Shown here piece by piece: positions 8,262 to 44,833 of a stretch of DNA of 44,833 nucleotides. Source of the DNA: Oscillospiraceae bacterium (GTDB taxonomy: Bacteria > Bacillota > Clostridia > Oscillospirales > Oscillospiraceae). The notes beneath the pieces are model-generated. The model saw only the letters and a list, made by a program, of their open reading frames with translations, did not search any database and was not told the origin of the DNA. Made by a program: the position numbers and the translations under genes. The stretch covers positions 1 to 44,833 of the forward strand of contig JAFXAW010000024.1 in the NCBI GenBank assembly GCA_017522015.1. Reading direction: 5' to 3'. Each line of letters starts with the position of its first letter. Positions within the stretch are counted from its first letter, which is position 1.

Positions 8262-9454
8262 TGGCAAAGATTCAGATGAAGACGCCGATCGTCGAGATGG
8301 ACGGCGACGAGATGACGCGCATCCTGTGGCGGATGATTAAGGACACGCTGATTCTGCCCTATGTGGAGCTGAAAACGGAGTATTATGACCTCGGTCTGCT
8401 CAACCGCAACGCGACGAAGGATCAGGTGACGGTGGACGCAGCGGAGGCGACGAAAAAGCTTGGTGTTGCAGTCAAGTGCGCAACGATCACGCCGAACGCG
8501 CAGCGCATGGAGGAGTATCCGGAGCTGACCGAAATGTGGAAAAGTCCCAACGCCACGATCCGATCCATCCTTGACGGCACGGTTTTCCGTACGCCGATTC
8601 TGGTGGACAGCGTAAAGCCGGTCGTGCGCAATTGGGAAAAGCCCATCACGGTGGCGCGGCACGCCTACGGAGATATTTATAAGGCGGTCGAGCTGCACAC
8701 GGCGGAGCCGGGTACGGCGAAGCTTGTCTTCACGGGCGAGAGCGGTGCGGTGCAGGAACTGACGGTGCAGAAAATGGCCGGACCCGGCGTTCTGCAGGGC
8801 ATGCACAACCGGGAAAGCTCCATCGAGAGCTTCGCGCATGCCTGCTTCCGCTTCGCTATCGACACGAAGCAGGATCTGTGGTTCTCGGCGAAGGATACCA
8901 TCTCCAAGGTCTATGACGGCACGTTCAAGGAGATCTTCGATCGGGTGTTTGCCGACTATAAGGCGGAGTTTGAGCGGCTGGGCATCACCTATTTCTACAC
9001 GCTGATCGACGATGCCGTAGCGCGCGTGATGCGCTCCCGCGGCGGCTTTATCTGGGCCTGCAAGAACTATGACGGCGACGTGATGAGCGACATGATCTCC
9101 ACGGCCTTCGGGTCTCTGGCGATGATGACGAGCGTTCTGGTGTCACCGGACGGAAATTATGAATACGAGGCCGCACACGGCACGGTCACGAAGCATTACT
9201 ATCGCCATCTGAAGGGCGAGGAGACAAGCACGAATCCTGTCGCCACGATCTTTGCCTGGACGGGCGCGCTGCGCAAGCGCGGCGAGCTGGACGGCACGCC
9301 CGAGCTTTGCGCCTTCGCTGACCGGCTGGAGCAGGCCTGCCTGGATACGATTGAGGCGGGGGAGGTCACGGGTGACCTTGCTTCTCTTGCGGAGCGGGAA
9401 AGCAAAGCGCTCACAAGCGCTGCGTTCCTCAAGGCGGTTGCATCGAGGCTGTAA
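8261..9454 (+). CDS. icd: NADP-dependent isocitrate dehydrogenase
   Basis: A 397-residue enzyme of the homodimeric, eukaryote-like class of NADP isocitrate dehydrogenases, oxidising isocitrate to 2-oxoglutarate. Hallmarks: TPIVEMDGDEMTRI at the N-terminus, the substrate loop KSPNATIRSILDGTVFR, the metal-binding segment LIDDAVARVMRSRGGFIWACKNYDGDVMSD, and EAAHGTVTKHYYRHLKG for NADP. The ATG shares its A with the TAA of the hydratase gene, and GAGGGAAG lies just upstream, so the two are coupled. Together with pyruvate carboxylase downstream, it suggests the oxidative branch to glutamate. Confidence 0.95.
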   Translation: MAKIQMKTPIVEMDGDEMTRILWRMIKDTLILPYVELKTEYYDLGLLNRNATKDQVTVDAAEATKKLGVAVKCATITPNAQRMEEYPELTEMWKSPNATIRSILDGTVFRTPILVDSVKPVVRNWEKPITVARHAYGDIYKAVELHTAEPGTAKLVFTGESGAVQELTVQKMAGPGVLQGMHNRESSIESFAHACFRFAIDTKQDLWFSAKDTISKVYDGTFKEIFDRVFADYKAEFERLGITYFYTLIDDAVARVMRSRGGFIWACKNYDGDVMSDMISTAFGSLAMMTSVLVSPDGNYEYEAAHGTVTKHYYRHLKGEETSTNPVATIFAWTGALRKRGELDGTPELCAFADRLEQACLDTIEAGEVTGDLASLAERESKALTSAAFLKAVASRL

Positions 9455-16798: not shown

Positions 16799-17641
16799 GT
16801 GAAGCTATGGAATGCCATCGTGCTCGGTCTCGTGCAGGGCATTGCCGAGTTTTTGCCCATCTCCAGCTCCGGACACCTTTCGATTTTGCAAAACTTTTTC
16901 AATATGCAGAGCGCAGAGCAGGGACATATGTTCTTTGACGTACTGCTCCATCTCGCCACGCTCGTCTCTGTATGCATTGCATACCGCGAAGAGATAAGAG
17001 ACATCGTTCGGGAGATTATTTCATGGTTCCGAAAAAAGACGCCGGTGGACAAACAGCCGAGAGAACCGCTGACCACCAGACGGCTGATTCTGATGATCGT
17101 GATGGGCACATTGCCGCTTGTGGTGATGGTGCTTCTCAAGCGCTTTGTGGAGCCGCTGTATATGAGCACGGTGTTCATCGGCATTGCGCTCATCCTGACG
17201 GGATTCATTCTCTATGTTGCCGACCGCATGGTGCCGGGGCGCAGAAACGAAAAGAACATGCGCATCCGGGATGCGCTGGTGGTGGGCGTGTGCCAGGCGA
17301 TCGCCGTGATCCCCGGCCTCTCCCGCAGCGGAACGACCATCACAGCGGGCATCGCCACCGGGCTTGACCGCGAGTTTGCGGTGAAGTATTCTTTCCTGCT
17401 CTCCGTTCCGGCGGTGCTGGGCGCCAATCTGCTTGAGCTGATTGATGTGATCCGGGAGGGCGTGGATTTTTCGCTGCTGCCGGTCTATCTCGTCGGTATG
17501 GTGGTTGCGGGCGTGGTTGGCTATTTTGCCATTTCCCTGATCCGCCGCATCGCAAAGAAGGGCAGCTTCGGCGGTTTTTCCTACTACTGCTGGGGCGTCG
17601 GCATAATCACGGTTTTTGTTAGCCTGATTAATCTGATTTAA
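16799..17641 (+). CDS. uppP: Undecaprenyl-diphosphatase
   Basis: A 280-residue integral membrane enzyme (BacA/UppP family) that removes a phosphate from undecaprenyl pyrophosphate, recycling the lipid carrier for cell-wall synthesis; extra copies give bacitracin resistance. The two catalytic regions are present: GIAEFLPISSSGHLSI near residue 20, and AVIPGLSRSGTTITAG near residue 175. Seven or eight hydrophobic helices can be followed. It starts with GTG after GGAAGGGAGGGAAAGG. The next gene, ftsK, begins 46 bases later without a visible terminator. Confidence 0.95.
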   Translation: MKLWNAIVLGLVQGIAEFLPISSSGHLSILQNFFNMQSAEQGHMFFDVLLHLATLVSVCIAYREEIRDIVREIISWFRKKTPVDKQPREPLTTRRLILMIVMGTLPLVVMVLLKRFVEPLYMSTVFIGIALILTGFILYVADRMVPGRRNEKNMRIRDALVVGVCQAIAVIPGLSRSGTTITAGIATGLDREFAVKYSFLLSVPAVLGANLLELIDVIREGVDFSLLPVYLVGMVVAGVVGYFAISLIRRIAKKGSFGGFSYYCWGVGIITVFVSLINLI

Positions 17642-35641: not shown

Positions 35642-35724
35642 TCGGGCTGTGCAGAAACTCAATTTGTGATTTTTCCGCTTTATGGCGGGTGAGAATCTAC
35701 ATATTTTTATGGGAGGAATCAAAC

Positions 35725-36723
35725 ATGACAGAAAAAGAAAACTTTATGAGGATGCTTAGAGGCGACATGCCCGAGTGGTTGCCTTTTGATTCTCTTGGCA
35801 TTAAGCATGAGGGAATCGAGCCGTTCATGGCCGGCGTTCATGCTGACATTTTGGGTCGTAAGGGTAACCGGGACATCTTCGGTGTCGAGTACGAGTCCAC
35901 GGACAGCACCGGCGGCGCGTCCATGCCTGCACCCCGTAACTTCATCCTCAAGGACATCAGCGATTGGCCGGAAGTCATCAAGGTTCCGGACATCAACGAT
36001 TATGACTTTGCTGAGATGGCCAGAAAGGGTCTCGAGCGCATTGACCGCAACAAGACCGCTGTTTCCGTCGGCGTGTTCGGCGGCTACTTCCAGCAGCTGA
36101 TGGCCTTCATGGGCTTCTCCGAGGGTCTGTTTGCCATGGCGGCTGATCCGGAAGAGTGCTACAACCTGTTTGAGTACCTGGCCGACTTCTTTGATGAGGT
36201 CGCCGTGCGTATGATCGATGCCGTTCGTCCCGACGTCTTCGCGCTGACCGATGACGTGGCTTCCGCGCAGAACACCTTCATGTCCTACCCCATGTGGTGC
36301 GAGCTCGTTAAGCCCTTCCAGGTCCGTCTGGCCAAGCACGCCAACGAGCTGGGCATTCCGATTTCCATGCACTGCTGCGGCAAGTGCGAGCATCTGGTCG
36401 ACGACTGGATGAGCTACGGCGTCAAGATCTGGGATCCGGTTCAGACCATGAACGACATCCCGGCCATCAAGGCGAAGTATGGTCGCAGCCTGATCCTCAA
36501 CGGCTGCGGCTCCCACGCGGATGCCTTCCTCTTCAGCTGGAGCACCGAGGAAGAGGTTCGTGAGTGCATGCGCAAGAAGATCGACAGCTATGCTCCGGAC
36601 GGCGGCTACATCTGCCGTGGCTACGTGGTTGGACCTAAGTCTGACCCGACTGTCGAGCTGCGCCGCAAGTGGGTTGGCGACGAGTACCTGAAGTACGGCC
36701 GCAACTGGTATCAGAATCACTAA
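35725..36723 (+). CDS. UroD-family methyltransferase-like protein, paralogue 2
   Basis: A 332-residue paralogue. Residues His216 and Cys218 (SMHCCGKCEH) and Cys261 (NGCGSHAD) are the possible zinc ligands. It shares YGVKIWDPVQTMNDIPA with paralogue 4 and nearly so with 3, and an 80-base identical stretch with paralogue 3. GGGAGGA precedes the ATG at 35725; an in-frame ATG 12 codons upstream is not used by the other copies, which all begin M-(T/N)-E-K-(E/D)-N. It ends in KYGRNWYQNH, and a terminator-like hairpin follows. Confidence 0.87.
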   Translation: MTEKENFMRMLRGDMPEWLPFDSLGIKHEGIEPFMAGVHADILGRKGNRDIFGVEYESTDSTGGASMPAPRNFILKDISDWPEVIKVPDINDYDFAEMARKGLERIDRNKTAVSVGVFGGYFQQLMAFMGFSEGLFAMAADPEECYNLFEYLADFFDEVAVRMIDAVRPDVFALTDDVASAQNTFMSYPMWCELVKPFQVRLAKHANELGIPISMHCCGKCEHLVDDWMSYGVKIWDPVQTMNDIPAIKAKYGRSLILNGCGSHADAFLFSWSTEEEVRECMRKKIDSYAPDGGYICRGYVVGPKSDPTVELRRKWVGDEYLKYGRNWYQNH

Positions 36724-36740
36724 GTTTTAAGCTTTCCAGG

Positions 36741-36772
36741 AGCACGGCGTCTCTTTCGGGAGACGCCGTGCT
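36741..36772 (+). terminator. Hairpin after paralogue 2 (recurrent CACGGCGT type)
   Basis: AGCACGGCGTCTC (36741-36753), loop TTTCGG, exact complement (36760-36772), then TGTATGCTTTG. Only moderately T-rich. The arm sequence recurs after paralogues 3 and 5. Confidence 0.75.
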
Positions 36773-36800
36773 TGTATGCTTTGTATTTTGCTGCTTTTGG

Positions 36801-36842
36801 GCGGTTTGAGTGTTTAGACATTATTTTTTGGAGGATACGCAC
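36801..36842 (+). repeat. Duplicated leader, copy A
   Basis: These 42 bases before paralogue 3 match the 42 bases before paralogue 4 at 36 positions without gaps, including ATTATTTTTTGGAGGATA. The upstream leader was duplicated along with the gene. Confidence 0.75.
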
Positions 36843-37844
36843 ATGACAGAAAAAGACAACTTGATGAAGATGCTCAAGGGCGACATGCCGGAGTGGCTGC
36901 CCTTTGACACTCTCGGTGTGAAGCATGAGGGGATTGATCCGGTCATTACCGGTGCCCGCATCAACATCATGGGCCGTGCCAGCGGTAAGCCAGACATTTT
37001 CGGCGTTGAATACACCGGATCGGACAGCACGGGCGGTGCGTCCATGCCTGCGCCCAACAACTTCATCCTCAAAGACATCAGCGATTGGCCGAAGATCATC
37101 AAGGTTCCGGACATCAACGATTACAACTTTGATGAGCTGGCGAGAAAGGGTCTGGAGGGCATTGACCGCAGCAAGACGGCTGTTTCTGTCGGTATCTTTA
37201 ACGGCTATTTCCAGTCTCTGATGGCCTTCATGGGCTTCTCCGAGGGCCTGTTTACCATGGCCTGCGATCCGGAAGAGGTTTACAACCTGTTTGAGTACAT
37301 GGCCGGCTTCTTTGATGAGGTTGCCGTGCGCCTGATCGACGCCGTGCGTCCCGACATTTTCAACATCTCTGACGACGTGGCCTCCGCGCAGAACACCTTC
37401 ATGTCTTACGACATGTGGTGCAAGCTCGTCAAGCCCTTCCAGATCCGTCTGGTCAAGCACGCCAACGAGCTGGGCATTCCGATTTCCATGCACTGCTGCG
37501 GCAAGTGCGATCATCTGGTGGACGACTGGGTGGACTTCGGCGTCAAGATCTGGGATCCGGTTCAGACCATGAACGACATCTCCGCTATCAAGGAAAAGTA
37601 CGGACGCAGCCTGATCCTCAACGGCTGCGGCTCCCACGCGGATGCCTTCCTCTTCAGCTGGAGCACCGAGGAAGAGGTTCGTGAATGCATGCGCAAGAAG
37701 ATCGACAGCTATGCCCCGAACGGCGGTTACATCTGCCGCGGTTACGTAGTTGCCGCCAAGGGCGATGAGACCGTTGCGCCGCGCCGCTACTGGGTTGGCG
37801 ACGAGTATCTCAAGTACGGCCGTAACTGGTATCAGAATCACTAA
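36843..37844 (+). CDS. UroD-family methyltransferase-like protein, paralogue 3
   Basis: A 333-residue paralogue very close to copy 2: starts MTEKDNLMKMLKGDMPEW, shares the MHCCGKCDHLVDDW zinc-site motif and GCGSHADAFLFSWSTEEEV, and ends KYGRNWYQNH. It differs most in the N-terminal third (GARINIMGRASGKPDIFG), the part that may shape the substrate pocket. GGAGGATA lies 7 bases before the ATG. It is flanked by hairpins of the CACGGCGT type on both sides, so it could be a separate transcript. Confidence 0.87.
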   Translation: MTEKDNLMKMLKGDMPEWLPFDTLGVKHEGIDPVITGARINIMGRASGKPDIFGVEYTGSDSTGGASMPAPNNFILKDISDWPKIIKVPDINDYNFDELARKGLEGIDRSKTAVSVGIFNGYFQSLMAFMGFSEGLFTMACDPEEVYNLFEYMAGFFDEVAVRLIDAVRPDIFNISDDVASAQNTFMSYDMWCKLVKPFQIRLVKHANELGIPISMHCCGKCDHLVDDWVDFGVKIWDPVQTMNDISAIKEKYGRSLILNGCGSHADAFLFSWSTEEEVRECMRKKIDSYAPNGGYICRGYVVAAKGDETVAPRRYWVGDEYLKYGRNWYQNH

Positions 37845-37860
37845 GCTTTCCGTTTTTAAG

Positions 37861-37895
37861 AAGCACGGCGTCTTCACAAAAGAAACGCCGTGCTT
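37861..37895 (+). terminator. Hairpin after paralogue 3 (recurrent CACGGCGT type)
   Basis: AAGCACGGCGT (37861-37871) pairs with 37885-37895, followed by GTATTGCTT. It is the same stem core as the hairpin at 36741-36772. Confidence 0.72.
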
Positions 37896-37938
37896 GTATT
37901 GCTTGCACTCCAACGATTTAGAGTGGCACAGATTCTGA

Positions 37939-37980
37939 GCGGTTTGAGAGTTTGAAAATTATTTTTTGGAGGATATGCAA
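37939..37980 (+). repeat. Duplicated leader, copy B
   Basis: The counterpart of 36801-36842, directly before paralogue 4, with six mismatches. Confidence 0.75.
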
Positions 37981-38982
37981 ATGAACGAAAAAGACAATTT
38001 GATGAAGATGCTCCGGGGCGAAATGCCTGAGTGGCTGCCTTTTGACGGCTACGGAATGGAGACGCCCGGAATTGAGCCGATGATTACGCAGGTGAACTGC
38101 AGCGCGTTTGTGCGTCACGACAACAAGGATATGTTCGGCGTGGAATATACGGCGACGGACAGCGCCGGCGGCGGTTCTCTGCCCACCCCCAACTATTTCA
38201 TTCTCAAGGATATCCACGACTGGCCGGATGTCATCAAGGTGCCGGATCTGAGTGACATTGACTTTAATGAGCTCGCCAGAAAGGATATGGAAGGCATTGA
38301 CCGCAGCAAAACGGCCATCAAGATCCGTCCGGGCGGCGGCTATTTCCAGCTCCTGATGTCCTTTATGGGCTTCACGGAGGGTCTGTTTACGCTGGCTGTG
38401 GATCCGGAAGAGGTTTACAACCTGTTTGAGTACCTGGCCGATTTCTATGATGAGCTCGCCGTGCGCATGATCGACGCCTACCGGCCTGACATTTTCGGCC
38501 TGGGTGATGACGTTGCCTCTGCGCAGAACCTGTTTATCTCCTATCCGATGTGGAGTGAGCTTGTCAAGCCCTTCCAGCAGCGTTTCGCCAAGCACGCCAA
38601 CGAGCTGGGCATTCCGTGCTCGATGCACTGCTGCGGTAAGTGCGACGTGCTGATTGACGACTGGATGAGCTACGGCGTCAAGATCTGGGATCCGGTTCAG
38701 ACCATGAACGACATTCCCGCCATCAAGGAGAAGTACGGACGCAGCCTGATCCTTGCCGGCTGCGGCTCGCATCAGGATGCTTTCCTCTTCAGCTGGTCCA
38801 CGGAGGAAGAGGTGCGCGAGTGCATGCGCAAGAAGATCGACAGCTATGCCCCGAACGGCGGCTACTTCTGCCGCGGCTACGTGGTAGGCCCGAAGGACGA
38901 CCCGACCGTCGCGCTGCGCCGCAACTGGGTTGTGGACGAGTATCTGAAGTACGGCCGCGACTGGTATCAGAGAAACGCATAA
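37981..38982 (+). CDS. UroD-family methyltransferase-like protein, paralogue 4
   Basis: A 333-residue paralogue of the copy 2/3 subgroup: MNEKDNLMKMLRGEMPEW, SMHCCGKCDVLIDDW, YGVKIWDPVQTMNDI, GCGSHQDAFLFSW. Its N-terminal third (GYGMETPGIEPMITQVNCSA) and TAIKIRPGGGYFQLL differ from the others, suggesting a different substrate. Its end is DWYQRNA. GGAGGATA precedes the ATG. It lies 34 bases before paralogue 5 without a hairpin, so 4 and 5 are probably on one message. Confidence 0.87.
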   Translation: MNEKDNLMKMLRGEMPEWLPFDGYGMETPGIEPMITQVNCSAFVRHDNKDMFGVEYTATDSAGGGSLPTPNYFILKDIHDWPDVIKVPDLSDIDFNELARKDMEGIDRSKTAIKIRPGGGYFQLLMSFMGFTEGLFTLAVDPEEVYNLFEYLADFYDELAVRMIDAYRPDIFGLGDDVASAQNLFISYPMWSELVKPFQQRFAKHANELGIPCSMHCCGKCDVLIDDWMSYGVKIWDPVQTMNDIPAIKEKYGRSLILAGCGSHQDAFLFSWSTEEEVRECMRKKIDSYAPNGGYFCRGYVVGPKDDPTVALRRNWVVDEYLKYGRDWYQRNA

Positions 38983-39016
38983 GCAGACGTTATAATTTTT
39001 GGGGAGGTGTAAACGC

Positions 39017-40021
39017 ATGACAGAAAAAGAAAACTTTTTAAGAATGCTCAGAGGCGATATGCCGGAGTGGCTGATTTTCCAGGGCTCCGGGGAGCTGCCT
39101 CCCGAGATCAAGCCTGCAACGGCAATGTGCCGCGGCCCGGTGTTCCGTCAGGGTGGCAGGGATATTTTCGGCATCGAGTACACAGCAACGGACAGCACGG
39201 GTGGCATGGAGCTGCCTACTCCCAACAACTTCATCCTCAAGGACATCCACGATTGGCCGGACGTCATCAAGCTGCCGGACATCAATGATTTCAACATCGA
39301 AGAGATTGCCAGAAAAGAGCTTGCGAAGATCGATCGCAATGAAGTGGCGGTCAGCCTGAGCGCGCCGAGCGTTGTCCAGGGCTATTTCCAGACGCTGATG
39401 GCCTTTATGGGCTTCTCTGAAGGCCTGTTCACGATGGCCTGCTATCCGGAAGAGGTTTATAACCTGTTTGAGTATCTGGCCGATTTCTTTGACGAGCTTG
39501 CCGTGCGGATGATTGACGCCTACAAGCCCGACATTTTCGGCATTGCAGATGATGTCTCCTCTGCCCAGAACACCTTCATGTCCTACGACATGTGGTGCGA
39601 GCTCATCAAGCCCTTCCAGGTGCGGATGACCAATCACGCCAACAAGCTGGGTATTCCGATCTCCATGCACTGCTGCGGCAAGTGCGAGCATCTGATCGAC
39701 GACTGGAGAAGCTTCGGCGTTATCATGTGGAATCCGCCGCAGGATATGAACGATCTGGATGCCATCAAGAAAAAGTATGGCCGCAGCCTGATTCTCAATG
39801 GCTGCTCCTCGCCCAAGGATCCTTACCTCTTCAGCTGGAGCACGGAGGAAGAGGTTCGCCAGTGCATGCGCGACAAGATCGACAGATTTGCCCCGGACGG
39901 CGGCTACATCTGCCGCGGTTTCGTAGTCGCTGCCAAGGACGATCCGACGGTTGAACAGCGCCGCAACTGGGTTGCGGATGAGTATCTGAAGTACGGCCGC
40001 AACTGGTATCAGAAGCACTAA
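39017..40021 (+). CDS. UroD-family methyltransferase-like protein, paralogue 5
   Basis: A 334-residue paralogue: MTEKENFLRMLRGDMPEW, SMHCCGKCEHLIDDW, MWNPPQDMNDL and LNGCSSPKDPYLFSW. It shares the WNPPQDMND subgroup motif with paralogue 1, although its C-terminal part (KYGRNWYQKH) resembles copies 2 and 3. GGGGAGG lies 10 bases before the ATG at 39017. Transcription ends at the hairpin at 40039-40075. Confidence 0.87.
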   Translation: MTEKENFLRMLRGDMPEWLIFQGSGELPPEIKPATAMCRGPVFRQGGRDIFGIEYTATDSTGGMELPTPNNFILKDIHDWPDVIKLPDINDFNIEEIARKELAKIDRNEVAVSLSAPSVVQGYFQTLMAFMGFSEGLFTMACYPEEVYNLFEYLADFFDELAVRMIDAYKPDIFGIADDVSSAQNTFMSYDMWCELIKPFQVRMTNHANKLGIPISMHCCGKCEHLIDDWRSFGVIMWNPPQDMNDLDAIKKKYGRSLILNGCSSPKDPYLFSWSTEEEVRQCMRDKIDRFAPDGGYICRGFVVAAKDDPTVEQRRNWVADEYLKYGRNWYQKH

Positions 40022-40038
40022 ACCGAAATTTAGCAAGT

Positions 40039-40075
40039 ACACGGCGTTTCCCTTTTGGGAAGCGCCGTGTTTTTT
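40039..40075 (+). terminator. Terminator at the end of the UroD-family array (CACGGCGT type)
   Basis: ACACGGCGTTTCCC (40039-40052), loop TTTT, partner at 40057-40070 with one T-G wobble, then a run of T to 40075. It is the best terminator of the three related hairpins. Confidence 0.85.
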
Positions 40076-40115
40076 CATGTCGGCAAAAGCGGCAGAATGC
40101 GGACTTGCGTATTCG

Positions 40116-40124
40116 GAATACAAT
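40116..40124 (+). promoter_or_regulatory. Possible sigma-E type -10 for sigK
   Basis: GAATACAAT resembles the mother-cell sigma-E -10 (CATACAAT), which would fit a sigK gene. The -35 region is not convincing, and no sigma-A promoter with proper spacing is seen. Confidence 0.3.
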
Positions 40125-40153
40125 AAAGCATTCGAAAAGGGAGGAATGCATGT

Positions 40154-40501
40154 ATGATCGCGAGTGCAATTTTGCTGCTGCTCAGCAGCGCATTCTGGAT
40201 GCTGCGCATTGGGAATGGGGTCGGGTCATTCCCGCGCCCACTCAGCGCACAGGAGGAGCGCGAGTGCATTGACCGTGCGCTTGCCGGGGACATGGAGGCG
40301 CGCAATAAGCTCATTGTGCACAATTTGCGCCTTGTCGCCCACATTATGAAGAAATACTACACCCAGACGTCGGATCAGGAGGATCTCATCTCCATCGGCA
40401 CGATCGGGCTGATTAAGGGGATATCGTCCTATCGCCCGGAGCGCGGCGTGCGCCTTGCAACCTATGCGTCCAAATGTATAGAAAATGCTATCCTCACATG
40501 A
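40154..40501 (+). pseudogene. sigK: RNA polymerase sporulation sigma factor SigK, N-terminal part only (interrupted)
   Basis: A 115-codon frame covering the start of sigma-K: a hydrophobic pro-sequence-like N-terminus ([15 protein letters not shown]), then [33 protein letters not shown] and region 2 ([35 protein letters not shown]). Regions 3 and 4 are missing: it stops after CIENAILT, and nothing like the C-terminal half appears in the rest of the window. In Bacillus subtilis and Clostridioides difficile sigK is split by a skin element, in B. subtilis within the equivalent CIEN-E codons. GGGAGGA lies 8 bases before the ATG. Either a skin-like element is inserted here or the gene is broken for good. 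Confidence 0.85.
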
Positions 40502-40513
40502 GCGACTTTAAGA

Positions 40514-40651
40514 ATGGCGGAGCATGCGCCGGCTGACACAGTGCCGTGGTGTTACAATTACAGATTCTACAAGCTACTCTTTGCATGGCGGACAAAATGC
40601 GAAGATCTGCGGCTGTTTGTGATTGACGGTGGCAGAAAGAACCCGGAATAA
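40514..40651 (+). CDS. Short frame directly after the sigK stop, unassigned
   Basis: Forty-five codons in the same frame as sigK, four codons beyond its TGA, starting MAEHAPADTVPWCYNYRFYK and ending DGGRKNPE. It has no good ribosome binding site and I recognise nothing. It might be a remnant of a longer protein joined at the insertion point. Confidence 0.2.
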   Translation: MAEHAPADTVPWCYNYRFYKLLFAWRTKCEDLRLFVIDGGRKNPE

Positions 40652-40695
40652 AAAATAAAGCAAGGACAGGCTGCTTCTTATGCCTGATCCTTGCT
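40650..40695 (-). terminator. Terminator for the minus-strand 71-residue gene
   Basis: AGCAAGGA plus CAGGC (40659-40671) pairs with GCCTG and TCCTTGCT (40682-40695) with one bulged base. On the minus strand it is followed by TTTATTTTTTATT. It overlaps the end of the small gene. Confidence 0.75.
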
Positions 40696-40893
40696 CCGTT
40701 CTTTTGCTGTTTCAATGACGGCATCCAAAAGATCTGATTTTTGTTTTGTCGGGCAGCTCAACGAATTGATGTGCTGCGTAATTGCGGATGCATGAACATC
40801 GGATACTCGCCTGGCCAATTCCTCCCGACTGGCTGCGGTTTGGGGATGATGTACGGTCAAGATGATCGGTGCTGCACTTCGGATGACGGTCAC
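40678..40893 (-). CDS. Small protein, possible accessory gene of a site-specific recombinase
   Basis: A 71-residue frame starting with GTG: IILTVHHPQTAASREELARR, then VSDVHASAITQHINSLSC and a charged end KERSKDQA. The GTG overlaps the TGA of a short upstream frame ending in ANSFPIPKQSARR, and AAGGAG abuts the GTG, a layout typical of coupled genes. It ends in a good terminator. From memory, proteins of this kind sit next to large serine recombinases in clostridial mobile elements. No recombinase is visible here. It converges on sigK, as spoIVCA does in the Bacillus skin element. Confidence 0.5.
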   Translation of the reverse strand: MTVIRSAAPIILTVHHPQTAASREELARRVSDVHASAITQHINSLSCPTKQKSDLLDAVIETAKERSKDQA

Positions 40894-41312
40894 CTCCTTG
40901 CACTTTGCTTCGGAATGGGGAAGCTGTTTGCCATTACGGGGTAAAGAAAAACTTAGCTTATAGAAAACGCGGGGTTGAGACGTTAAAGCCGCTCAATATA
41001 GCGGTGAGAACCTGAATAAGCATATGTGTAAGTGTCTGCGGGAATGCCTGGGGCGGTCGGCGCATTTCTTGAGGGAAGTATTTAGCGGTGGTGAAATATT
41101 AATGCTGGACTTCATGAGAAAAATGAGGTACAATAATCTTTATAACAAAAGTGTGAGCTGCGTTGTTTTGGAGAATAACGATCCATGCTCGGTGCATTTG
41201 CGGCGTAAGACGCTTTGATCTGTTTAATATGCTGTCCGTTGAGGACTTTTTCTTCGTTACAGCATATGATCTGAAGCGGTGCAGGTCGTGAATGTGGAAA
41301 AGAGGTTACCAG
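40894..41312. other. Gene-poor segment between the element remnant and the glycosyltransferase
   Basis: It holds the end of a short minus-strand frame (FLYPVMANSFPIPKQSARR, about 40894-40952, preceded by a stop) that may be the tail of a deleted gene, and the promoter at 41106-41134. A 64-codon plus-strand frame at 41024-41218 has no ribosome binding site and looks like chance. Confidence 0.45.
41106..41134 (+). promoter_or_regulatory. Promoter for the glycosyltransferase gene
   Basis: TGGACT at 41106-41111, a 17-base spacer and TACAAT at 41129-41134; the leader is about 170 bases. Confidence 0.5.
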
Positions 41313-42137
41313 ATGGGTGGATACTCCGTCTTGATGTCTGTATATCCGGGGGAAAAACCGGCGTATTTTGAACAATCGCTGGAAAGCATGATTAAGCAAA
41401 CGGTGGTAACGGATGACTTTGTCGTTGTCTGTGACGGGCCGCTGACGCCTGAACTGGATGCTGTTTTGGAAAGATATCAACAGCAATATCCCGGGATTTT
41501 TCATATTGTGCGGATGGAAAGCAACATGGGAATCGGCAGCGCTGCCAATGTAGGTTTGCAGCATTGTAAAAATGACCTGGTTGCGAAAATGGATACAGAT
41601 GACATCGCGGTTCCGACCCGCTGTGAAGCGCAGCTGAAGCGATTTGCCGAATGTCCGGAGCTGACCGTGCTGGGTGGATATATTGAAGAATTTGATGAAG
41701 ATCCCGCTTGTCCGACCTCTGTTCGAAGCGTGCCCCTGAGCAACGAGAATATCCGGAAATTTGCCCGCCGAAGACAGCCCTTTAATAATATGACTGTCAT
41801 GTACCGCCGGGAGGCGGTCATGCAGGTGGGTGCTTACCGGAATTTGCGTCGGGCTGAGGATTTTGATCTGTATATTCGCCTGCTGCATGCGGGGTACTAT
41901 TGCGAGAATATGGATCAGGTGCTGGTGCGGGCTCGGGTGAACAGCGCTGCGTTTGCGCGCCGCGGTTCTGTTGCAACCCTGAAAGGCTGCGTACAGTCCC
42001 GGTGGAACTCCTATAAGCTGGGTTATGCTTCTTTTCTGGATGTTTGCGTGTGCGTATGCGGCGGAATTGTTATGCTGCTGAGCAATCCTGCTATTTGCAA
42101 ATTCATCTATAAGCTTTTCCTGAGAGATAAGCCGTAA
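41313..42137 (+). CDS. Family 2 glycosyltransferase
   Basis: A 274-residue GT-A fold enzyme transferring a sugar from a nucleotide donor onto a glycan or lipid acceptor. N-terminal YSVLMSVYPGEKPAYFEQSL, nucleotide-binding VVVCDGPLTPEL, the metal-binding KMDTDDIAVP and the later RRAEDFDLYIRLLHAGY are standard. The C-terminus has one hydrophobic segment (VCVCVCGGIVMLL), perhaps a membrane anchor. The ATG at 41313 (AAGAGG 8 bases upstream) is preferred over one seven codons earlier, since homologues begin at this YSVLMSVY block. The codon mix (more AT-rich) differs from the housekeeping genes. Followed by a terminator. Confidence 0.9.
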   Translation: MGGYSVLMSVYPGEKPAYFEQSLESMIKQTVVTDDFVVVCDGPLTPELDAVLERYQQQYPGIFHIVRMESNMGIGSAANVGLQHCKNDLVAKMDTDDIAVPTRCEAQLKRFAECPELTVLGGYIEEFDEDPACPTSVRSVPLSNENIRKFARRRQPFNNMTVMYRREAVMQVGAYRNLRRAEDFDLYIRLLHAGYYCENMDQVLVRARVNSAAFARRGSVATLKGCVQSRWNSYKLGYASFLDVCVCVCGGIVMLLSNPAICKFIYKLFLRDKP

Positions 42138-42253
42138 AGCCTTCTTATCCGAGGATGGCGCTCGTGGGTGAGCGTACAGGAAAACCGTGTGTACTTATTT
42201 GCAGAAATTTGATTTACGGCAAAGAGGGCGGCGTCGCCTGAAATGAGTGAATA

Positions 42254-42293
42254 GAAAACGACAGGGGCACATTTACGGGCACCTGTCGTTTTC
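42254..42293 (+). terminator. Terminator after the glycosyltransferase
   Basis: GAAAACGACAGG (42254-42265) pairs with CCTGTCGTTTTC (42282-42293), loop 16 bases with some inner pairing. The A4 and T4 flanks lie inside the stem. Confidence 0.7.
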
Positions 42294-42324
42294 CTATGTA
42301 AAAAGGCGCTCGCATAGAAAATGA

Positions 42325-42354
42325 TTGAAATTGCACAATGTGGTGTTGTATAAT
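42325..42354 (+). promoter_or_regulatory. Promoter of the polysaccharide ABC exporter
   Basis: TTGAAA at 42325-42330, an 18-base spacer and TATAAT at 42349-42354. Confidence 0.7.
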
Positions 42355-42383
42355 AGTAATATTAGATTTTAGGAGCTGTTTGG

Positions 42384-43166
42384 GTGCTTAACAGGCTGTT
42401 TCTGGATATAAAGAAATATTATCAGTATTCTATGGCTTCTGCAAAAGCGAAGCTGAAGGCAGAGGTGGCCAATTCCTATTTGAATTGGCTTTGGTGGATT
42501 TTGGATCCGCTGTGCTTTATGCTGATCTATACCATTGTGTTTGGATATGTGTTCAATTCCAAAGAATCGTATTTCTGCATTTTTATTTTTATCGGCATCT
42601 CGATGTGGGACTTCATGAATAAAACGCTGGTATCCAGCGTGAAGAGCGTGAAGCTCAATAAGGCCGTTGTTTCCAGAGCGTATTTCCCCAAATACATTCT
42701 GATTCTGATAAAAGTGTGGATCAACGGGTTCAAAATGCTCATTTCCTTTGGCGTTGTTGGGGTTATGATGATCATTTTCCGCGTTCCGGTGTCCTGGAAT
42801 ATCCTGTATTTTATTCCGATTTTGTTGACGCTGGGACTGTTTACCTTTGGCTGCGCCTGCTTTTTGCTGCATTATGGCGTATATGTGGAAGATTTGAGCA
42901 ACGTTTTGAACGTGGTTTTGCGCTTTGTATTCTATGCCACAGGCATTTTCTATAATGTCTCTACCCGCATTCCAAAATTCGGGGAATTGCTCAACAAAAT
43001 CAATCCCATGGCCTTTCTGATCAGCGCGATGCGGCAGGGCTTGCTTTACGGACAGCGTCCGGATCTGGGGATTCTGGCCGCATGGTTTGGCTTCAGCCTG
43101 CTTTTGGCGCTGGCTGGTATCCGCAAGATTTACAAGGCAGAAAACAGTTATGTAAAAGCCATTTAA
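42384..43166 (+). CDS. ABC-2 type permease for polysaccharide/teichoic acid export (Wzm/TagG-like)
   Basis: A 260-residue membrane protein with six helices in the ABC-2 fold: an amphipathic N-terminus (DIKKYYQYSMASAKAKLKAE), LNWLWWILDPLCFMLIYTIV, a GISMWDFMNKTL loop, and the C-terminal NKINPMAFLISAMRQGLLYG that marks this family. It forms the channel passing undecaprenyl-linked glycan across the membrane. It starts with GTG; AGGAG is 8 bases upstream. The ATPase gene begins 15 bases after its stop. Confidence 0.92.
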   Translation: MLNRLFLDIKKYYQYSMASAKAKLKAEVANSYLNWLWWILDPLCFMLIYTIVFGYVFNSKESYFCIFIFIGISMWDFMNKTLVSSVKSVKLNKAVVSRAYFPKYILILIKVWINGFKMLISFGVVGVMMIIFRVPVSWNILYFIPILLTLGLFTFGCACFLLHYGVYVEDLSNVLNVVLRFVFYATGIFYNVSTRIPKFGELLNKINPMAFLISAMRQGLLYGQRPDLGILAAWFGFSLLLALAGIRKIYKAENSYVKAI

Positions 43167-43181
43167 GAAAAGGGAAAGCCG

Positions 43182-43910
43182 ATGAGCGAATATGCAATAG
43201 AGGTTGAAAACCTCAGTATCTCCTATAAGGGACTGAAATCCTATTCCATAAAAAGAAACTTTCTGCTGGGAAAGAGAAACAAACCGGCGACCTTTTTGGC
43301 GCTGAAAGACATCAGCTTCCGGTTGGAAAAAGGCGAGATTTTGGGTCTGGTGGGCAAAAACGGCAGCGGAAAAAGCACCTTACTGAAGGCAATCGCCGGT
43401 ATTTTCACGCCGGATAGCGGCACGGTGAATCTGCACGGCAATACGGTTACCCTGCTGGCCATCGGTGTCGGTTTCCAAAAGGAACTGTCGGGCCGGGAGA
43501 ACATTCTCCTTTCCGGTATGCTGATGGGGTTTTCCAAAAAGGAAATCCTCAGCAAGTCCGATGAGATTATTGAGTTCTCTGAACTGGGAGAGTTTATTGA
43601 CAAGCCTGTGAGTACATATTCCAGCGGCATGTACTCCAAACTGTCCTTTGCCATTACGGCGATTTTGGAGACGGATATTATTTTGATTGATGAAGTGCTT
43701 AGCGTGGGCGATGCCCGTTTCAAAAAGAAGAGCTACCAGAAAATGAAAGAGCTGATAGGGCAGAAAAACCGCACAGTAATCATTGCCTCACACGACCGTA
43801 AGGCGGTTGCGGAGCTTTGCGATAAGGTCCTCTGGATCAATGACAGCCAGCTTATGCAGATTGGAGAAACGGCGGAAGTTCTGCGTGCCTATGACGCCTT
43901 CATGGACTAA
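43182..43910 (+). CDS. Polysaccharide ABC exporter ATP-binding protein (Wzt/TagH-like)
   Basis: A 242-residue ATPase partner of the permease. Motifs: Walker A GLVGKNGSGKSTLLKAIAG, the family-typical GVGFQKELSGRENI, signature STYSSGMYSKLSFA, Walker B IILIDEVLSVGDARF and the H-switch IASHDRKAV. It lacks the C-terminal carbohydrate-binding domain of long Wzt proteins, so it should export without end-group recognition. GGGAAAG precedes the ATG. A perfect 19-bp terminator follows. Confidence 0.94.
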   Translation: MSEYAIEVENLSISYKGLKSYSIKRNFLLGKRNKPATFLALKDISFRLEKGEILGLVGKNGSGKSTLLKAIAGIFTPDSGTVNLHGNTVTLLAIGVGFQKELSGRENILLSGMLMGFSKKEILSKSDEIIEFSELGEFIDKPVSTYSSGMYSKLSFAITAILETDIILIDEVLSVGDARFKKKSYQKMKELIGQKNRTVIIASHDRKAVAELCDKVLWINDSQLMQIGETAEVLRAYDAFMD

Positions 43911-43918
43911 CCGGACAG

Positions 43919-43963
43919 AAAATGCAAGGGATATGAAGTGTTCATATCCCTTGCATTTTGTTT
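43919..43963. terminator. Perfect 19-bp terminator after the exporter genes
   Basis: AAAATGCAAGGGATATGAA (43919-43937), loop GTG, exact complement (43941-43959), then GTTTT. Confidence 0.85.
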
Positions 43964-43972
43964 TACCCAAAG

Positions 43973-44003
43973 AAAAATCTCCCGACAGTGTCGGGAGATT
44001 TTT
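43973..44003 (-). terminator. Terminator of the FN3-repeat protein gene
   Basis: AAAAATCTCCCGA (43973-43985), five-base loop, complement (43991-44003). On the minus strand the T5 is inside the stem and is followed by CTTTGGG. It lies five bases beyond the gene's stop codon. Confidence 0.8.
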
Positions 44004-44008
44004 GGCTG

Positions 44009-44833
44009 TTAAGGAACGGTTACCTTGACAATATTACTGAACTGACCGGCCACATTGCTTGCATCAATGGCCCGAACCTTGTAGTAGTAAGTGTTGGCCT
44101 TGGGGGAGTTGATGCAATTAAGCTTGGTGGTGGTGATCAGCTTGGAATAGGTTCCGTTTTCGCTGGTGGCACGCCAGACTTCATATTTTACAGCGCCGGA
44201 AACGGTGTTCCAGGAGATGACGGCCTTGTTGTTGGTGTTGAGCTTGCCGGTGATGACGGGCACAACGTCTTCCTGTCCGGGAACTGTGACGCAGACGATG
44301 TTGCTGTATGCGCCGACATTGCCGTTAGAATCAATGGCGCGAACCTTGTAATAGTAGGTGTCGGCCTTGGGGGAGTTGGTGCAGGAAAGCTTGGTGGTGG
44401 TGATGAGCCTGGAATAAGTTCCGTTTTCGCTGGTGGAACGCCAGACCTCATATTTTACAGCACCGGAAACGGTGTTCCAGGAGATGACAGCCTTGTTGCT
44501 GGTGTTGAGCTTTCCGGTGATGACAGGCACAGCGCTTGACTGTCCGGGAACTGTGACGCAGACGATGTTGCTGTATGCGCCGGTGTTGCCGTTCGAATCA
44601 ATGGCGCGAACCTTGTAGTAGTAGGTGTCGGCCTTGGGGGAGTTGGTGCAGGAAAGCTTGGTGGTGGTGATGAGCCTGGAATAAGTTCCGTTTTCGCTGG
44701 TGGAACGCCAAACTTCATATTTTGCAGCGCCGGAAACGGTGTTCCAGGAGATGACAGCCTTGTTGCTGGAGTTAAGCTTGCCGGTGACACTGGGGGTGCC
44801 GGGAACAGCAGGAAGGCCGCTGTCTAAGCTGCA
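44009..44833 (-). CDS. Fibronectin type III repeat protein, C-terminal part (runs off the window)
   Basis: 274 codons remain open to the window edge. They encode three repeats of 89 residues, the pattern being ITGKLNTSNKAVISWNTVSG, AVKYEVWRSTSENGTYSRLI, TTTKLSCTNSPKADTYYYKV and RAIDSNGNVGAYSNIV. These are fibronectin-III-like modules common in secreted or surface enzymes and adhesins of clostridia. The last repeat ends AGQFSNIVKVTVP and has no anchor motif such as LPXTG, so the catalytic or binding domain and the signal must lie beyond the window. The real start is not visible. Confidence 0.85.
   Translation of the reverse strand, partial: CSLDSGLPAVPGTPSVTGKLNSSNKAVISWNTVSGAAKYEVWRSTSENGTYSRLITTTKLSCTNSPKADTYYYKVRAIDSNGNTGAYSNIVCVTVPGQSSAVPVITGKLNTSNKAVISWNTVSGAVKYEVWRSTSENGTYSRLITTTKLSCTNSPKADTYYYKVRAIDSNGNVGAYSNIVCVTVPGQEDVVPVITGKLNTNNKAVISWNTVSGAVKYEVWRATSENGTYSKLITTTKLNCINSPKANTYYYKVRAIDASNVAGQFSNIVKVTVP
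44012..44833. repeat. Tandem 267-bp repeats (three copies)
   Basis: A landmark such as CGAACCTT recurs at 44073, 44340 and 44607, exactly 267 bases apart. The copies are nearly identical at the DNA level, the two right-hand ones most of all, which points to recent amplification. Copy number may be underestimated by short-read assembly. Confidence 0.85.

What the first reader, a model, noticed from the sequence alone, without database searches (positions are those of the whole stretch)
40154..40501. sigK interrupted at the classic skin-element position
The frame encodes the pro-sequence and region 2 of sigma-K and breaks off right after CIENAIL. In B. subtilis the skin element splits sigK in the same conserved CIEN-E codons. 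The C-terminal half is not in the following 4.3 kb. If a developmentally excised element is present, excision should restore GAA-AAT-GAR-ATC-CTC here.
Basis: partly seen in the sequence, partly recalled or inferred. Interest (0 to 1): 0.85.

Follow-up and report, generated by a model that had tools for sequence, protein, structure and literature searches.

The report
Split sigK with excisable surface-gene element
A sporulation control gene in an uncultured gut bacterium is cut in two by a DNA element of about 28.5 kb that carries its own cutting enzyme and cell-surface genes, and that is probably removed, rejoining the gene, only in the cell that dies while making a spore.

Summary
Window 40154-40501 is the 5' half of sigK (TIGR02846 positions 2-114). 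The 3' half lies in the same genome on contig C12 (110401-110757, minus), just behind a 586-aa large serine recombinase. The right ends of the two contigs overlap (99% over 274 bases, the only other full-length match in the genome), so both halves flank one element of about 28.5 kb. Joining at the shared AAATG gives a 229-aa SigK over the NF004471 SigK cut-off (under that of TIGR02846). The element ends form a near-palindromic attP. Same-genus relative G001 has this site uninterrupted. attL or attR signatures occur in 34 of 400 genomes of the family; a complete element lies in one closed genome. Among the element pieces compared, only the recombinase and a family-less ~70-aa protein (window 40678-40893, minus) clearly recur; I propose the latter as directionality factor. 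Cargo differs: here a polysaccharide exporter, glycosyltransferase, LicD and giant surface proteins; in one relative, its only panB with panC and panD. Excision itself was not observed. This is a new variant of a known kind (skin-like elements).

The parts
40154..40501 (+). 5' half of sigK (pro-sequence and region 2), ends CIENAILT*
40475..40495 (+). attL: chromosomal left half plus element right arm GCTATCCTC; crossover inside AAATG at 40483-40487
40678..40893 (-). ~71-aa ORF conserved in sigK elements; candidate recombination directionality factor (start codon uncertain)
   Evidence: no Pfam or PHROG match
40487..44833 (.). left 4.35 kb of the element; it continues on contig C12 from 135274 down to about 110745 (total about 28.5 kb)
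41292..42137 (+). cargo: family 2 glycosyltransferase
   Evidence: PF00535
42384..43166 (+). cargo: ABC-2 exporter permease; no match in same-genus G001
   Evidence: (PF01061)
43182..43910 (+). cargo: ABC exporter ATPase
   Evidence: PF00005
44009..44833 (-). cargo: 3' part of a secreted fibronectin-III-like repeat protein; its 5' part is C12:133979-135274 (L034 11979-13274)

Best explanation
sigK is interrupted at codons N-E of CIENE by a skin-like integrative element of about 28.5 kb. Shown by sequence: both gene halves in the genome; matching cores; a recombinase gene ending in the attR core; an intact reading frame after joining in silico; the site uninterrupted in a relative; a family of such elements in related genomes. 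Inferred: the element entered when its own large serine recombinase recombined a near-palindromic attP (GAGGATAGC-AAAT-GCTATCCTC) with an attB inside sigK (GAAAATGAAATCCT). In the mother cell, sigma-E (probably with SpoIIID) turns on the ~70-aa protein encoded beside attL; that protein acts as directionality factor and makes the recombinase join attL to attR; the element leaves as a circle; sigK is restored and pro-sigma-K is made. The forespore keeps the element, so its cargo (polysaccharide export, glycosyl and surface-protein genes) is inherited through spores. My estimates: split gene with element about 0.97; excision in the mother cell about 0.85; the ~70-aa protein as directionality factor about 0.7.
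For: 3' half C12:110401-110757 (TIGR02846 108-226), directly behind a 586-aa recombinase with Resolvase, Recombinase and zinc-ribbon domains. Window end 44560-44833 matches C12:134945-135218 at 99%; its four further matches are shorter repeat copies on these same two contigs. In-silico joining gives 229 aa scoring 264.9 bits against the 252-bit cut-off of NF004471 (SigK). G001, same genus, reads GAAAATGAAATCCTC uninterrupted. attP arms, which lie kilobases apart in the integrated state, are inverted repeats matching at 8-13 of 13 positions in 8 of 8 rebuilt elements (2-3 innermost positions are fixed by my search pattern). attL pattern in 29 and attR pattern in 19 of 400 genomes, both in 14, reversed-pattern controls zero. 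Complete elements in single contigs, one in closed genome G102. The ~70-aa protein is in 25 of 34 att-positive genomes against 8 of 366 others; without the five genomes that supplied the query, 20 of 29. SigE and SpoIIID are present in this genome, above cut-off.
Against: No reads, PCR or expression data: excision is not shown. The contig join runs through fibronectin-III-like repeats, so exact length and repeat number are uncertain. The joined SigK is under the TIGR02846 cut-off (258.8 against 298.65), as are 59 of 60 genomes. The window's own ~70-aa ORF has no sigma-E-like promoter by my crude matrix, built from a recalled consensus (p 0.67); of 20 non-redundant members, the window's own included, 7 reach p <= 0.05 (combined p 1e-5). 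That ORF was not detected in 9 of 34 att-positive genomes. The layout is not uniform: G025 has the recombinase at the attL end, G024 has it away from attR, G006 has a variant attL core (AAATCC), and G102's attR did not fit the pattern. SpoIVFB was not identified by name: three places with M50 peptidase matches only.
Confidence: 0.9

Rival explanations
1. Dead fragment: the element is a decayed remnant and the organism no longer sporulates, so sigK is a split pseudogene.
For: The genome is a draft of 1.87 Mb at 91% completeness and excision was not observed.
Against: Both sigK halves and the 586-aa recombinase are open; the joined protein passes a SigK cut-off; att cores match; SpoIIID and SigE are above cut-off.
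Confidence: 0.05
2. Assembly or binning artefact: a contig end or chimera splits a normal sigK.
For: The halves lie on two contigs of a draft assembly and the contig ends fall in repeats.
Against: The break is at an att core, not at a contig end; split sigK with both ends lies within single contigs of G024, G025, G102 (closed), G114 and G155; G006 and G030, also split, have recombinases 74% and 60% identical.
Confidence: 0.02
3. The element is real but the ~70-aa protein is not the directionality factor (for example a repressor or accessory DNA-binding protein), and another factor drives excision.
For: No family match; not detected in 9 of 34 att-positive genomes; predicted only as a two-helix hairpin (mean pLDDT 78).
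Against: Apart from the recombinase it is the only gene clearly shared between this element and the pieces of others compared. It lies within 1.5 kb of a sigK half or the recombinase in 26 of 30 loci. Known factors of this kind are small (Skr 64 aa, CD1234 72 aa; PMC6957869 and PMC5025042, passages).
Confidence: 0.3

Closest known systems
skin element of Bacillus subtilis (SpoIVCA, Skr)
   Same: Splits sigK; large serine recombinase inside; reported recombination site AATGA, as in AAATGA of attR here (PMC10745906 section 3.1); small directionality factor (PMC6957869 passages).
   Different: 48 kb with many phage-like genes and the recombinase beside the 5' part (passages); here the recombinase is beside the 3' half and the cargo is cell-surface genes.
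skin element of Clostridioides difficile (CD1231, CD1234)
   Same: Recombinase directly upstream of the sigK 3' part; small (72 aa) directionality factor in the element; inverted repeats at its att sites (PMC5025042 passages).
   Different: Reported as 14.6 kb, prophage-like and at a different sigK site from B. subtilis (passages); [quoted passage not shown] Homology of CD1234 to the ~70-aa protein was not tested.
sigK island IV of Bacillus cereus biovar anthracis
   Same: Non-phage genomic island in sigK, excised during sporulation (PMC10745906 passages and section 3.1).
   Different: Inserted at position 195, with restriction-modification genes; AATGA not identified there.
gin element in gerE of Bacillus cereus ATCC10987
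   Same: Described as a non prophage-like sporulation-gene interrupter (PMC5595907, search listing with title and start of abstract only).
   Different: Different target gene.

Membership tests
skin-like developmentally excised sigK intervening element | sigK split into 5' and 3' parts in direct orientation flanking one element | tested here: met
   (contig join through repeats)
skin-like developmentally excised sigK intervening element | Element encodes a site-specific (large serine) recombinase | tested here: met
skin-like developmentally excised sigK intervening element | Precise joining at a shared core restores the reading frame | tested here: met
   In silico
skin-like developmentally excised sigK intervening element | Directionality factor encoded in the element | tested here: inconclusive
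   Conserved ~70-aa candidate, function inferred
skin-like developmentally excised sigK intervening element | Excision occurs during sporulation, in the mother cell | not testable with these tools
   No reads or cultures; sigma-E-like promoter signal in some relatives only
B. subtilis skin (defective prophage) | Phage-derived gene content | tested here: not met
   Pfam names no phage structural gene in the cargo proteins scanned; PHROGs was run only on the recombinase and small ORFs
B. subtilis skin | Recombinase beside the sigK 5' half | tested here: not met
   It is beside the 3' half here; G025 has it beside the 5' half

The most novel reading that the evidence does not exclude
In this gut family sigK is a recurrent docking site for a distinct lineage of recombinase plus ~70-aa-factor modules that often carry ordinary host cargo (surface glycan export here, a sole panB with panC and panD in one relative). 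The cargo is kept in the spore line and discarded only in the dying mother cell. In 13 of 19 attR loci the recombinase's stop codon is itself made by integration (AAA-TGA in attR), so the excised circle would encode a longer recombinase; this could act as a built-in switch on re-integration.
Probability: 0.35. Interest if true: 0.75.

Novelty: new variant of a known kind. Interest (0 to 1): 0.62.

Why it matters
It suggests that programmed sigK rearrangement is not a curiosity of a few model spore formers: 38 of 400 sampled genomes, in 25 genera of one family, carry signatures of the same type of split. It offers recombinase, att-site and candidate directionality-factor sets for testing how excision is tied to cell fate. 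It also shows that metabolic or surface genes of the host can ride in such elements. Elements split over contigs may make sigK look broken or absent in draft genomes, which could lead to wrong calls of 'non-sporulating' (inference).

Tried and rejected
Rejected: second intact sigK (the other match of full-length score is SigE); assembly artefact (closed genome G102); prophage for this element (no phage structural domain named in its cargo). G102's element, by contrast, holds repressor-like, resolvase-like and tyrosine-recombinase-like ORFs by eye, so cargo in the family is not uniformly non-phage. Rfam search of window 39900-44833 gave nothing. The sigma-E promoter scan was weak for the window itself: ~70-aa ORF p 0.67, sigK p 0.31, recombinase p 0.053. 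The two-helix model of the ~70-aa protein was not searched against folds, since such hairpins match widely. In the classification of 80 named loci (the 80 best of a capped list), 8 were flagged split; reading the printed junctions, I discount L110 (contig edge) and L123 (reads on normally), which leaves 6 of 80; L109 and L132 of these have a different core spelling. I first took G001 as a fully intact sigK; its last codons turned out to be displaced, though the middle site is uninterrupted. Partial SigK matches in G031, G032 and G059 (a capped list) were not followed up.

Full report
OBSERVATION. ORF 40154-40501 (+) encodes 115 aa. It matches SigK models over the pro-sequence and region 2 (TIGR02846 2-114 of 227, E 9.4e-41; NF004471 E 2.3e-40), well ahead of SigE (E 8.8e-30), and ends CIENAILT*. 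The window is all of contig C24 of a 1.87-Mb, 49-contig genome, 91% complete. The nearest named loci are mainly uncultured Oscillospiraceae and Clostridia, many from animal guts (the own record may be left out there), so I infer an uncultured gut Oscillospiraceae-like bacterium.

THE OTHER HALF. A Sigma70_r4 search of the genome gave 15 matches; one, on C12 at 110407-110559, sits in a 148-aa frame without region 2. It is the sigK 3' half (TIGR02846 108-226). Directly upstream lies a 586-aa large serine recombinase with all three expected domains (PHROG integrase, E 1.4e-110). Its stop codon TGA is formed inside the attR core, AAA-TGA.

ONE ELEMENT. The right ends of C24 and C12 face each other and overlap inside one secreted fibronectin-III-like repeat gene (339 bases at 95%). 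Window 44560-44833 matches C12:134945-135218 at 99%; its other four matches in the genome are shorter repeat copies on the same two contigs. Joined there, the element is 28,546 bp, subject to the true number of repeats. Flanks were compared with same-genus G001: window 40069-40496 (sigK 5' half and about 85 bases before it) is 88% identical to G001 C16; the gene upstream (39779-40122) matches at 94% but lies about 9 kb further upstream there; the gene downstream of the 3' half (aldose-epimerase-like by eye) follows the sigK tail of G001 at 94% identity.

SITE. attL is GAAAATG-CTATCCTC, attR is GATAGCAAATG-AAATCCTTATG, and G001 has GAAAATGAAATCCTC uninterrupted. Crossover within AAATG restores CIENEILMYFR; the joined 229-aa protein scores 264.9 bits against the 252-bit cut-off of NF004471, though 258.8 is under the 298.65 cut-off of TIGR02846, which 59 of 60 genomes also miss. 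attP is GAGGATAGC-AAAT-GCTATCCTC. Of nine elements tried, eight could be rebuilt (G102's attR did not fit the pattern); outer arms differ between elements yet largely pair with each other, 8 to 13 of 13 positions symmetric, of which 2-3 are fixed by the search pattern. Since these arms lie kilobases apart when integrated, this is good evidence that the two ends belong to one recombination site. G006, not among the nine, has a variant attL core, GAAAATCC.

DISTRIBUTION. In 60 genomes scanned for SigK (own included, listing capped), both halves were seen apart in G000, G006, G023, G024, G025, G030 and G033, and only a 3' half in G035. Patterns for attR and attL were drawn from these. In 400 genomes of the family (a sample of a larger group), the exact attR pattern is in 19 and the attL pattern in 29; 14 have both, the union is 34, reversed-pattern controls are zero. 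Adding four genomes where the ~70-aa gene lies beside a sigK half gives 38 genomes in 25 genera. I did not inspect each one, and strict patterns miss others (G023 and G030 lack the exact attR). Complete elements inside one contig include closed genome G102 (5' half, ~70-aa ORF, recombinase, 3' half in order; about 10.9 kb), G155 (10.7), G024 (11.7), G025 (9.0) and G114 (6.9 kb); coordinates of attL and attR on one contig and strand imply elements also in G129, G173, G276, G306 and G398, up to about 35 kb (subtraction only).

CORE AND CARGO. This element's ORFs were compared with those of pieces of six others (G006, G023, G024, G025, G030, G033; several pieces are short; of G035 only 170 bases). 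Apart from a 27% ABC-ATPase match to G025 and small ORFs overlapping the two genes, only two genes recur: the recombinase (44-74% identity in five) and the 71-aa ORF at 40678-40893 (33-65% in four). The latter has no Pfam or PHROG match, is predicted as a two-helix hairpin (mean pLDDT 78), and is found in 33 of 400 genomes: 25 of 34 att-positive against 8 of 366 others (Fisher p 2e-25; relatedness not corrected, and five of the 25 supplied the query). Of the 30 loci returned (36 matches listed), 23 have a sigK half and 3 a recombinase within 1.5 kb; 4 have neither. In the circle it would lie across attP from the recombinase. I therefore propose it as the directionality factor; known ones are 64 aa (Skr) and 72 aa (CD1234) (passages). 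A sigma-E-like promoter is enriched before these genes as a set (20 non-redundant, 7 at p <= 0.05, combined p 1e-5; matrix from a recalled consensus) but not before the window's own copy (p 0.67). Cargo here: glycosyltransferase, ABC exporter pair, fibronectin-III-like repeat protein, two TupA-like ATP-grasp proteins, asparagine-synthase-like, cytidylyltransferase, LicD, LGT-like, and a surface protein of about 4,900 aa with a phosphodiester glycosidase domain (length by adding frames). The exporter permease has no match in G001. In G155 the cargo includes msrA, msrB, panB, panC and panD by Pfam, and that panB is the only one found in its genome. G102's element looks partly phage-like by eye.

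RECOMBINASE STOP CODON. In 13 of 19 attR loci a recombinase-matching frame ends at the core TGA; a fourteenth (G035) is cut by the contig end, and five differ (tallied by reading its rows). In the circle the frame of G000 would run 16 codons further, 602 aa. Whether this matters is open.

COMPARISON AND NOVELTY. It works like the skin elements. Site AATGA is as reported for B. subtilis; the recombinase position is as in C. difficile; non-phage content has a precedent in island IV of B. cereus biovar anthracis. Seven paper searches showed, in their capped listings, no account of sigK elements in Oscillospiraceae or of this small protein; subscription journals are mostly not held, so this is weak evidence of novelty. 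I rate it a new variant of a known kind. Not shown: excision, its timing, and the role of the small protein.

Noticed in passing
L065 10060-10130 and L230 (G001); L067 about 17019-17046 (G024); L228 about 9363-9400 (G114); L066 5376 (G025): A second recurrent break in sigK, just after GISRSYVSR/K near the 3' end. In G001 the missing last codons and the downstream gene lie on another contig (C14) next to an ORF that looks, by eye, like part of a conjugative ATPase. G024, G025 and G114 show a break there as well as at the middle site, so their sigK may be in three pieces.
   Followed up: partly
L217 8844-11131 (G155): panB, panC and panD sit inside a sigK element; panB has no second copy in that genome. 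The mother cell would delete these genes on excision.
   Followed up: partly
L066 (G025): The recombinase is at the attL end, antisense to sigK, and the small ORF at the attR end, although the att cores keep the usual orientation: the interior appears inverted.
   Followed up: no
L212 13198-15297 (G102): The recombinase frame runs without a stop into the sigK 3' half (699-aa ORF), a possible fusion protein.
   Followed up: no
window 35689-40021: Four tandem paralogues of about 340 aa (methyltransferase or uroporphyrinogen-decarboxylase-like, by eye) lie directly upstream of sigK.
   Followed up: no
L100 (Ruminococcaceae bacterium D5): A named relative whose sigK breaks off at the same codons, with no 3' half in the next 10 kb; a possible laboratory model.
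   Followed up: no
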